NCBI RefSeq assembly: GCF_032118995.1
Contig: NC_092650.1
Span: 23,198,001 to 23,262,000 of the forward strand
DNA length: 64,000 bases
Reading direction: 5' to 3'
Source of the DNA: Asterias amurensis
Taxonomy: Eukaryota; Echinodermata; Asteroidea; Forcipulatida; Asteriidae
Shown here: positions 2,737 through 61,707 of the stretch, in pieces
Position numbering within the stretch: position 1 is the stretch's first letter
Layout of the letters: each line of letters begins with the position of its first letter
The notes under the pieces: generated by a model
What the model saw: only the letters and a program-made list of their open reading frames with translations
Database searches by the model: none
What the model was told of the DNA's origin: nothing
Position numbers and translations under genes: made by a program

Positions 2737-2990
2737 TTAAATCTGCGTGGGCTGCTGTTGCATGGCCATTGGGGGCTGCTGGTTGTAAGCCGGGGGTCCT
2801 GTAGTCTGTGTCACGCCGGTGTACTGCGTCTGTTGCTGCCTGTTCTTACAGCAGCAGTGGTAGCAGAGACAGCCAACACATACACAGCATAGGACTACAG
2901 CTACTATGACACCCACAATGATGGCAACCAGGACGCCTATACCCAACTTGAACAGATTCATTGCAGTGTCGAAGAGCTCACCGCCACCAA
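2737..2990 (-). CDS. Gene 1 exon 4: TM helix, Cys cluster, PPAY tail, stop TAA
   Basis: Acceptor is ..tcataatag at 2991-2992 after a pyrimidine-rich stretch. The exon encodes 83 aa after the shared codon: a short acidic stalk (GGELFDTAMNLF), a helix of I/V/L residues, LCCVCVGCLCYHCCCK, then a Gln/Pro-rich tail with GPPAYNQQP and final QQPTQI. The Cys-YH-CCCK block is shared with genes 2, 4, 5 and 7 and closely matched in gene 6. Confidence 0.85.
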
Positions 2991-59363: not shown

Positions 59364-61707
59364 CTGATGAGTCAAGAAAAAGAAAAATGGAATCAATCGA
59401 TTGGTACTATTAGCCATTTAGAGGTATGGTGGGCACTCTTTAAAAGTGCACTGTTTGGATTGGGTGCATAAAATGGCTTATTACTGTGTCATGGCCTAGC
59501 GGTTAAAGGATTTGGGTACTTCTTCAAAATGTCCATAGATTAACATTAAACTAATACAGGGTTTGAAGATAATGCTAGTGGAAAGCTTCCCTTCAAATAT
59601 TACTTACTGAGGTGCTGTAGTTTTTGAGAAATGAGTAAAACAATGTCATGAAAATGTTTGTAAATGATTAAAATAATTTTCGTCTCATGAGACGAAAATT
59701 ATTTTCATGACATTGTTTCCCCCAAACTACATCACTTCAGCACGTAATATTTTTAGAGAAGCTTTCTACTATCATTATCTTCAAACTGTGTAAGTTTAGT
59801 GTAAATCTGTGGACATTGTGTTTTTTTGTCCTACAAAAGTTACACAGACCCTTTAAGGGCACCAGATTCAAACTCTGGTTTTTCTAACCAGCACAGTGTG
59901 TGTTCGAGTTCCCAGTCGTGGTACTTGTGTCCTCACAAGCAAGACACTAAACCGTGATGGGATGTAAAGCTGTTTGGTCCCGTGTGTTGTATAACGCGCG
60001 CTTCGAAAAGAGAAGTGGTTCGCCCTGGCCGGTGTTTCTGGCGTAATTTATAGGAGCAGATTACCCCACAGTTCATTGTAAACCATTATGCATGGAAGGA
60101 GCTTATCTCATAACCAGTCCCACGGTACCTTGCAGGATATGGTTTCGAGTCACAGTCGTGATACCTGTGTCCTTAAAAAAGCACGGCACGCGACTATGGT
60201 TGACACTATGCTTCGTCCTTCAGATGGGACGTAAAGCTGTTTGTTCCCGTGTGCTGTGTAACGCACGCAAAAGAAAACTGTGTACTCTTACGAAAGAGAA
60301 GTGGTTCGCCACGGTGTTTCTCTGGTGTAAACATTTGGAGCATATTGCGCCACAGCACCTTGATAACCATCAAATGATGCATTTATGCAGAGTTATGAGA
60401 CACAATCCCTATTATAAAGTCATAATTCAACAAGTCCGATAATAACTTGCAGGAAATGCTGTATGTTCCAGTGCCAGGGGCGAAACTGAGTGACTGACAT
60501 GTACACTGTTATAAGAATATGATTATTATTTTATGACATGTTTTTGTGTTTGGGGTGTTAGTGAGGGGGTGCGGTGGTGTTGATGTTGGGTGGGTGGGTG
60601 TGGTATAGTGTAGTGTTGGGGTTGTGTTGGGGGGGGGGGTTGTGATGGTGGTGTTCTGATGGTGTTGGTGTTGGCTGGTGGGGTGGGGTGGCTGTGTTTG
60701 GTAGGTAGGTGTGGGTATGTTTGGGTGGGATGGTGGTGTTGGTGCTGGTTTTGGTTGGGAGTGGTGGTCGTGTTGTGGGAGGGGTGTCGTGGTATTAGTG
60801 TTAAGTGGTGTTGGTGGCGGTGCTAGTGGCGTGTGTTTCGGGTGGGTGTGGTGGTAGTGATGGGTGGGTAGGGGGTAATGGTGGTGTTGGGTGTAGTGTT
60901 GGTGTTGGTTGGGTAAGTGTGGGTGTGTTTTGGGTGTGATGTTGGTGTTGGATTGGTGTGGAGATAGTGGGTGGGTGGAATATTGGGGAGGGGGGTTATT
61001 GTCGAGGGATATTTACCAGATTCGTCGCTTGAGTCGCCGCAGTTGTCGTATGAGTTGTACGTGAGATCCTGGTCAATACATCTGCCGTTGTCGCATTCAA
61101 ACTCAGATGACCTGCAAGTACCTGGGTAAGACATAAAACGCCCTTAAAGACACTGGGGTGGATTTCACTAAAGAGTTAAGTCTAGTCTTACCTCGAGTTA
61201 GGACGAGTTACTATGGGGATGTGCTGTGTCGTCATTCCTGATCCAGCACGCCATTGTTCCAGATTAAATTTTAACACGCAAATGGTTTATTGACAAGTTA
61301 TATTACTTCACCCAAACTCTCACCCGAGGAAAAGGCCGTGTAGGCAATACGGAACCCAGATTCTACCGTCTCATTATCCGTCTTGAACCGTAGGGTGATA
61401 TGGTTCAGAGTTGACGTGACTTCGCTCGGAGTGTTCGACGATCCGCAGACCGTCAGCAGCTTGTCCCGCTCGTCGGTCGACAACCCGTTGTAGATCTCGA
61501 GGACGTCGCCCGCTGAGCTACACGGTGCCGACCCGTCGATATCCACCGTGTTGAAGGTCAGCAGTATCTTCTTCACGAAGGAGCTGGTCTCAAGGGCGAC
61601 ATCGCAGTCCAAGTTACTGGAGTAAAGCGGGTCGGACTGAGAGTACAGCACACCACCCAATGCTTCATCGATGTCGATGGTGCGGCCACAATGCTCGTCC
61701 AGATAAT
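59197..61707 (-). CDS. Gene 7: CUB-LDLa membrane protein, 5' partial, truncated tail
   Basis: Three exons seen: CUB 61707-61324, LDLa 61121-61017, TM/tail 59363-59197, all phase 1. No convincing signal exon lies between 61708 and 64000; first introns of paralogues reach 8 kb, so it is probably beyond the right edge. CUB has four cysteines and an NET sequon; LDLa has four cysteines; the helix is preceded by DDILTGILQWG, the LQWG form also seen in genes 2 and 5. The Cys block is LCVCIGCLSYHCCCK, but the tail stops after SRKQPQTIVLI and has no PPxY. The stop codon abuts the 3' end of a tRNA-derived SINE, so the tail may have been cut by that insertion. The LDLa-TM intron is GT-rich and open for 65 codons past the donor. 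Confidence 0.75.
59504..59857. repeat. Family D foldback, complete
   Basis: Centre cgtctcatgagacg; inside the gene 7 TM-LDLa intron. Confidence 0.8.
59890..60540. mobile_element. Two tandem S2 SINE-like elements
   Basis: Units at about 59890-60075 and 60110-60540 both carry ccgtgtgttgta/tgctgtgtaacgc, gagaagtggttcgcc and a degenerate B box. The 116-codon plus-strand ORF at 60092 lies entirely inside them. Confidence 0.5.
60541..61000. repeat. GT-rich strand-asymmetric tract in gene 7 intron
   Basis: Plus strand is almost free of C, built from ggtgttggtgttgg-like words; the sense (minus) RNA is C/A-rich. On the minus strand the LDLa frame stays open through 60823 as a Thr/Pro-rich reading. 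Confidence 0.85.
61017..61121 (-). CDS. Gene 7 exon: LDLa-like module with four cysteines
   Basis: Acceptor ..gtcttacccag, donor G|gtaaat, 34 complete codons. Encodes TCRSSEFEC, DNGRCIDQD and DNCGDSSDES. Cysteines IV and VI missing. The frame stays open beyond the donor into a Thr/Pro-rich reading (60823-61016). Confidence 0.84.
61324..61707 (-). CDS. Gene 7 exon: CUB domain
   Basis: Acceptor ..ggttaacag, donor G|gtgaga, 127 complete codons. Landmarks: EHCGRTIDID, SNLDCDVAL, KKILLTFNTVDIDG, GDVLEIYNG, LTVCGSS, ITLRFKTDNE, GFRIAYTAF. Four cysteines in CUB spacing. Confidence 0.88.

What the first reader, a model, noticed from the sequence alone, without database searches (positions are those of the whole stretch)
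2737..61707. Seven-gene array with one constant membrane/tail exon and variable or absent extracellular domains
Seen: seven same-strand genes share a TM + Cys-cluster exon type, while the ectodomain is CUB-LDLa (1, 6, 7), CUB alone (3) or a stub of about 10-30 residues (2, 4, 5). Known: CUB and LDLa are extracellular binding modules often shuffled as phase 1-1 exons. Inferred: a receptor/co-receptor family in which ligand-binding variants and headless partners share one signalling or trafficking module. I do not recognise this combination as a named family.
Basis: partly seen in the sequence, partly recalled or inferred. Interest (0 to 1): 0.85.

Follow-up and report, generated by a model that had tools for sequence, protein, structure and literature searches.

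The report
Receptor array with detachable heads
A row of seven animal genes appears to reuse one membrane anchor and inner tail, while the outer, probably ligand-catching part is present in four and missing in three, as if receptors and headless adaptors were cut from one pattern.

Summary
Seven minus-strand genes can be modelled in frame with phase-1 junctions: CUB+LDLa heads in G1, G6, G7; CUB alone in G3; none in G2, G4, G5. Six share a clearly homologous TM/Cys-cluster exon; G3's is in place and in phase but has no significant relative. No CUB/LDLa exon or relic was found in the headless genes. I add: predicted signal-peptide exons (G7's lies outside the window); five relatives elsewhere in the genome, two CUB-LDLa (a, c9) and three headless (b1-b3). 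First exons of b1-b3 are homologous to those of a and c9, so headed and headless genes share both outer exons. All five LDLa modules of the family lack Cys4 and Cys6. PPxY occurs in 8 of 11 modelled tails (shuffled mean 1.0). Best reading: single-pass adaptors with a probably palmitoylated Cys cluster and docking sites for NEDD4-type ligases, some bearing a ligand-binding head. They work like CYYR1, WBP1L or Commissureless but fail membership in those families. Against it: no RNA evidence, PPxY missing from three window genes, signs of decay in some headless copies. Function is inferred.

The parts
2737..2990 (-). G1 last exon: TM, Cys cluster, tail with PPAY, stop codon
3658..3756 (-). G1 LDLa-like exon with 4 Cys (Cys4 and Cys6 absent)
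4951..5325 (-). G1 CUB exon, phase 1-1
13344..13434 (-). G1 signal-peptide exon, tentative (8 kb upstream of the CUB exon; the intron holds a reverse-transcriptase-like fragment)
   Evidence: not found in the nearer 5.7 kb
24618..24823 (-). G2 (headless) last exon: TM, Cys cluster, short tail without PPxY, stop
29800..29893 (-). G2 signal-peptide exon (predicted)
32403..32536 (-). G3 last exon: TM ending in SCDDCC and a stop; homology to the other TM exons not established, almost no tail
33282..33665 (-). G3 CUB exon, phase 1-1; no LDLa exon found
34105..34189 (-). G3 signal-peptide exon (predicted)
38012..38319 (-). G4 (headless) last exon: acidic stub, TM, Cys cluster, PPPY close after the cluster, stop
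42062..42146 (-). G4 signal-peptide exon (predicted)
46269..46555 (-). G5 (headless) last exon: TM, Cys cluster, Gln/Pro/Tyr tail with PPTY, stop
47832..47889 (-). G5 signal-peptide exon (predicted, weakest of the window set: score 14.5; a longer exon ending at 47739 scores 15.1)
51717..52081 (-). G6 last exon: acidic stub, TM, Cys cluster, long tail with PPAY, stop
52372..52479 (-). G6 LDLa-like exon with 4 Cys
   Evidence: acceptor not the best-scoring nearby
53511..53870 (-). G6 CUB exon, phase 1-1
57157..57232 (-). G6 signal-peptide exon (predicted; 52% identical to the G7 one, E 0.04)
59197..59363 (-). G7 last exon: TM, Cys cluster, tail of 11 residues after the cluster, no PPxY, stop
61017..61121 (-). 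G7 LDLa-like exon with 4 Cys
61324..61707 (-). G7 CUB exon, phase 1-1; its predicted signal-peptide exon lies outside the window at C3:23263526-23263613

Best explanation
An animal gene family of small type I single-pass membrane adaptors. From the sequence: predicted signal peptide, optional CUB exon, optional four-Cys LDLa exon, and one last exon with TM helix, Cys cluster and Pro/Gln/Tyr tail, joined in phase 1, so that heads can be gained or lost without breaking the frame. Inferred: the Cys cluster at the inner membrane face is S-palmitoylated and places the protein in a membrane domain; PPxY in the tail docks the WW domains of NEDD4-type ubiquitin ligases; the adaptor thereby sends itself and whatever it holds to endosomes. 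Headed members hold an extracellular ligand or partner receptor through CUB (and LDLa). Headless members act through the membrane alone, as constitutive adaptors or dominant partners. Members without PPxY (G2, G3, G7) would be the non-degrading or decoy counterparts.
For: In-frame models whose junctions can all be placed in phase 1, the modelled site being best of all phases in 40 of 44. First exons of headless b1-b3 are homologous to those of headed a and c9 (44-60% identical, E 7e-6 to 0.01), and last exons are homologous. PPxY in 8 of 11 modelled tails against a shuffled mean of 1.0, with 0 of 5000 shuffles as high; without b1, 7 of 10 against 0.94 (b2 not modelled). A PPxY-to-PMAMQQ block is shared by G1, a, b1, b3 and c9. 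Pairwise dN/dS: b3-c9 0.178/0.744, b3-a 0.274/0.589, a-c9 0.205/0.721, G5-G7 0.296/1.399. Working analogues in print, passages seen: CYYR1 binds WWP1 by PPxY and drives its lysosomal loss (PMC11399591); WBP1L is palmitoylated, has a very short outer part, binds NEDD4-family ligases and restrains CXCR4 (PMC6991692); Comm is a short single-TM protein with L/PPxY motifs and no outer Cys (PMC5578492).
Against: No RNA or protein evidence. PPxY is missing from G2, G3 and G7, so ligase docking cannot be common to all members. Palmitoylation, topology and ligands are untested. No Pfam family passes its cut-off in any of the 12 TM/tail exons. b1-b3 dN/dS is about 0.88 on 17 changes, b2 and b3 last exons are identical, and the b2 first-exon donor reads GTTAAG, a poor site, so some headless copies may be decaying. 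The signal-peptide scan has a real background: at score 15 or more, 10 sense phase-1 hits, 3 antisense, 3 in phase 0, 1 in phase 2, Markov mean 0.6; at 17 or more, 7 against 3 antisense. It missed b2, whose first exon was found only by homology. The window's predicted signal peptides, the G6-G7 pair apart, are not recognisably homologous to each other. Even the analogues warn: the passages in PMC5578492 say that CYYR and Shisa did not mimic Comm in the fly assay, and that Comm's Nedd4 binding is not needed for Robo control.
Confidence: 0.42

Rival explanations
1. Ordinary lineage-specific tandem duplication of a CUB-LDLa receptor; headless copies are exon-loss by-products drifting towards pseudogenes, with no dedicated role.
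For: Introns share dispersed repeats; b1-b3 dN/dS about 0.88 and a poor b2 donor; the c9 locus carries two truncated CUB copies; G3 and G7 have lost most of the tail. On the tree a single origin of the headless state is not ruled out by well-supported branches, and the label is not more clustered than shuffles (113 and 172 of 500 as low).
Against: Headless last exons are open to the stop with the Cys cluster intact in all six; headless genes lie in two separate places, and only 0-2% of 200 bootstrap trees need a single change; b3-c9 dN/dS is 0.24; G2, G4 and G5 are strongly diverged from each other yet keep the frame.
Confidence: 0.3
2. The window's headless 'genes' are alternative promoters: their first exons and TM exons belong to neighbouring headed units, and phase-1 exons are combined by splicing across the array.
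For: Same strand and phase-1 junctions, so any head could be spliced to any downstream TM exon; the nearest poly(A) hexamer after each stop lies 0.36-2.2 kb away and is no proof of separate 3' ends.
Against: b1-b3 stand alone, with no CUB or LDLa found in 60 kb, so standalone headless genes exist; each window gene has its own candidate first exon.
Confidence: 0.1
3. A set of pattern-recognition or endocytic receptors, for example of immune cells, in which diversity of the heads is what matters and the tail is mainly an anchor.
For: CUB heads of the window are 35-47% identical in the pairs measured; CUB and LDLa are binding modules; residues aligned to the CUB calcium site (site recalled, not from a call) differ: E/D/D in G3 and G6, D/D/D in G7, R/D/N in G1 (read).
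Against: Does not explain headless members or the shared PPxY block; no expression data. A starfish coelomocyte proteome (PMC13409769, passages only) mentions LRP12-like proteins with CUB domains; nothing in those passages identifies this family.
Confidence: 0.15

Closest known systems
STMC6 / Shisa-like adaptors (CYYR1, WBP1, WBP1L, VOPP1, TMEM92)
   Same: Signal peptide, one TM, Cys in or beside the TM (CYYR1), PPxY tail; headless members look like a minimal version
   Different: The six-Cys outer domain C*C*CC*CC (passages in PMC5578492 and PMC6991692) is absent; CYYR1 Pfam matches are 17.8 bits (G6) and 13.1 bits (G7) against a cut-off of 31, none listed for the other ten
Commissureless / PRRG4
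   Same: Short single-TM protein with little outer domain (Comm) and PY motifs
   Different: No LPxY motif in the tails printed; no direct sequence comparison with Comm was made; a CUB-LDLa relative of Comm is not known to me (recalled)
NETO1/2 (CUB-CUB-LDLa-TM)
   Same: CUB followed by LDLa and one TM; the CUB profile matches NETO2 (E 1.7e-11), the LDLa profile only weakly (E 0.25)
   Different: One CUB, four-Cys LDLa, different tail, headless members
LRP3/LRP10/LRP12 (CUB and LDLa receptors; architecture recalled)
   Same: CUB and LDLa on a single-TM receptor
   Different: Single CUB and single LDLa here; tails not compared
Gene at C3:0.64 Mb of the same genome
   Same: CUB-LDLa-TM order, phase-1-compatible junctions by eye, best non-family CUB match in the genome (36%, E 1.9e-11)
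   Different: LDLa has all six Cys; the putative TM exon has no Cys cluster and no PPxY

Membership tests
STMC6 / Shisa-like | Six-Cys outer domain C*C*CC*CC before the TM | tested here: not met
   Outer stubs of the five modelled headless proteins (G2, G4, G5, b1, b3) hold no Cys, cleavage site judged by eye; headed ones hold CUB/LDLa instead
STMC6 / Shisa-like | PPxY or LPxY in the cytosolic tail | tested here: met
   PPxY in 8 of 11 modelled proteins; not in G2, G3, G7
STMC6 / Shisa-like | Match to a Pfam family of the group (CYYR1) | tested here: not met
   12 TM exons scanned: 17.8 bits (G6) and 13.1 bits (G7) against cut-off 31, no CYYR1 row for the other ten
Commissureless / PRRG4 | LPxY core of the extended GLPSYDEAL motif | tested here: not met
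   None in the 11 tails printed (read by eye)
NETO | Two CUB domains followed by one LDLa | tested here: not met
   One CUB exon found per headed gene
LDLR class A module | Pfam PF00057 gathering score | tested here: met
   4 of 4 scanned, 29.0-34.0 bits against 24.1; the fifth, of gene a, was not scanned
LDLR class A module | Six Cys, bonds 1-3, 2-5, 4-6 (bond pattern recalled) | tested here: not met
   Four Cys in 5 of 5; the missing pair aligns with Cys4 and Cys6
CUB domain | Pfam PF00431 gathering score | tested here: met
   4 of 4 in the window, 49.2-72 bits against 21.4
NEDD4-ligase adaptor (function) | Tail binds WW domains and changes ubiquitination of a cargo | not testable with these tools
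   Needs a binding assay

The most novel reading that the evidence does not exclude
A natural set of extracellular-target degraders: CUB-LDLa heads capture a soluble or membrane ligand and the PPxY tail hands the complex to a NEDD4-type ligase, while headless and PPxY-less paralogues of the same array tune or block the route, so that head and ligase dock are two independently switchable modules of one gene family.
Probability: 0.15. Interest if true: 0.75.

Novelty: new variant of a known kind. Interest (0 to 1): 0.5.

Why it matters
It joins two kinds of protein usually studied apart, CUB/LDLa binding receptors and minimal PPxY membrane adaptors, in one tandem family where both the head and the ligase-docking motif are present or absent gene by gene. 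If expressed, it offers a natural experiment on what a receptor tail does without its head. The four-Cys LDLa, present in all five family members that carry the module, is a small structural oddity that can be tested directly; the Cys counts of the genome's many other LDLa modules were not examined, except one with six.

Tried and rejected
Hidden CUB/LDLa exons or relics in headless genes: none found by profile, Pfam (G2, G4, G5 only) or tblastn (six genes). A shared cryptic exon between G2, G4, G5 and b3: the tblastn and blastn hits in the introns look like dispersed repeats, many on the opposite strand or with stops; one b3-a blastn row is the TM exon itself. More TM exons with other heads: two queries gave the same 11 places, a lower bound, since G3's exon escaped both; G3's own exon finds only itself. 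LDLa in the genome at large: 150 of 834 candidates scored, none of the five family modules among them. Structure of the four-Cys LDLa: mean pLDDT 77, pTM 0.37; the best PDB matches are mostly LDLa chains, but the best E is 0.23 and none reaches 0.001, so not significant. TM-exon tree: b1 and b3 together at 97-99, with a and c9 at 80/91 and 88/93, the rest largely unresolved. Codon rows with G2 are in a wrong frame and were dropped; G4-G5 and G5-G6 are saturated. In one search the first models of a and c9 had 3 internal stops each from a misplaced acceptor; corrected. The last-exon acceptors of a, b1 and b3 as modelled are still three bases too early, adding one residue and no frame change; no window model is touched. 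Papers: searches (15 of 54 listed; 10 of 32; 12 of 12; 12 of 15; 10 of 128; none found) listed no paper that I recognised, by title and start of abstract, as about a CUB-LDLa-PPxY family; the library lacks most subscription journals. Pei and Grishin 2012 is known only through citing papers (not held).

Full report
Setting. The window is C3:23198001-23262000 of a 491.5-Mb genome in 23 contigs.

Gene models. On the minus strand lie CUB exons at four places, LDLa exons at three, and TM/Cys exons at six clear places and one doubtful one. A phase-1 acceptor was read by eye for each of the 12 TM exons of the family, and phase-1 sites were found for the CUB and LDLa exons by a script that listed phase 1 only. 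A later check over all phases put the modelled site first in 40 of 44; three of the four exceptions are acceptors of a, b1 and b3 placed three bases early, in the same phase, and the fourth is the G6 LDLa acceptor. Scans for signal-peptide exons ending at a phase-1 donor gave at least one candidate for each of the seven genes, for G1 only after the search was widened. At score 15 or more the 87.8 kb scanned hold 10 sense hits, 3 antisense, 3 in phase 0, 1 in phase 2, and 0.6 on average in Markov sequence, so single window candidates are not proof. The G7 candidate lies outside the window; that of G5 is the weakest and has two possible donors. The spliced proteins of G1 to G7 have 272, 99, 200, 130, 114, 302 and 247 residues and no internal stop.

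Relatives. The last exon has 11 matches in the genome by either of two queries: six in the window, three at C3:3.77-3.785 Mb (b1-b3), one at C3:3.308 Mb (a) and one at C9:17.573 Mb (c9). Genes a and c9 have CUB and LDLa; none was found with b1-b3 in 60 kb. First exons of b1-b3 are 56-60% identical to that of a and 44-48% to that of c9, so headed and headless genes share both outer exons. Of 200 bootstrap trees, 0-2% need only one head change, but well-supported branches alone do not rule out one origin and the label is not clustered beyond shuffles.

Heads. The LDLa of all five genes that carry one has four Cys; the pair aligning with Cys4 and Cys6 is missing. With the c9 module as query the five stand apart (E 3e-9 or better, then 7e-5). 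The genome has many ordinary LDLa modules (150 of 834 candidates scored), whose Cys were not counted. The best non-family CUB match is a gene at C3:0.64 Mb whose LDLa has six Cys and whose putative TM exon has neither Cys cluster nor PPxY, which suggests that the four-Cys form is derived. The CUB profile matches cubilin, PCPE-1, neuropilins, C1r, TSG-6, NETO2 and others in the PDB, so it points to no one ligand class.

Tail. After the cluster, tails are rich in Thr, Pro, Gln and Tyr. PPxY occurs in 8 of 11 modelled proteins; shuffling each tail gives 1.0 on average and never 8 in 5000 trials. b2 was not modelled; its last-exon protein equals that of b3. G2, G3 and G7 lack PPxY. A block from PPxY to PMAMQQ is shared by G1, a, b1, b3 and c9, which lie at four places in the genome. 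No Pfam family passes its cut-off in the 12 exons scanned; the best sub-cut-off rows include IncE, Hemotin, CYYR1 and FAM163, as expected of a hydrophobic, Cys-rich stretch.

Selection. Pairwise dN/dS is below 1 for b3-c9, b3-a, a-c9, G5-G7 and G1-G6, about 0.88 for b1-b3 on 17 changes, and undefined for identical b2-b3; G4-G5 and G5-G6 are saturated at silent sites. These are pairwise, not branch-specific, and do not prove selection on the headless state.

Mechanism. The anatomy fits a small membrane adaptor. From papers of which I saw passages only: CYYR1 uses PPxY to bind WWP1 and localises to late endosomes (PMC11399591); WBP1L is palmitoylated, binds NEDD4-family ligases, and its loss raises surface CXCR4 (PMC6991692); Comm and PRRG4 remove Robo from the surface, though CYYR and Shisa did not do so in the fly assay and Comm needs no Nedd4 binding for it (PMC5578492). 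By analogy the tail would recruit a ligase, the Cys cluster would be acylated, and the head would choose the cargo. All of these steps are inferred.

Verdict. The array is real and the description accurate, with a reservation on G3. By tested features it is not a member of STMC6, Commissureless or NETO. I rate it a new variant of a known kind: known modules in a combination, and with a head-and-tail on/off pattern, for which the listings seen here showed no precedent. Lack of RNA and of other species keeps the score moderate.

Noticed in passing
window 51136-51416: A CAG/CTG triplet array of about 94 copies lies about 300-580 bases downstream of the G6 stop codon, possibly in its 3' UTR.
   Followed up: no
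window 59002-59075 (+): tRNA-Ser (AGA) predicted on the opposite strand about 120 bases past the G7 stop.
   Followed up: no
window 7596-7958 (-): Reverse-transcriptase-like fragment, 28.3 bits against a cut-off of 29.6, inside the long first intron of the tentative G1 model.
   Followed up: no
C9:17587366-17595986: c9 locus: a second copy of the signal-peptide exon, and two truncated CUB copies with the same readable stretch upstream of the intact gene.
   Followed up: partly
C3:641305-642835: A separate CUB-LDLa-TM-like gene with a six-Cys LDLa, nearest CUB relative of the array outside the family.
   Followed up: partly
introns of G2, G4, G5, b3 and a: Dispersed repeats shared among introns of the family, 66-91% identical in the blastn rows for G2-G4 and b3-a.
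   Followed up: partly
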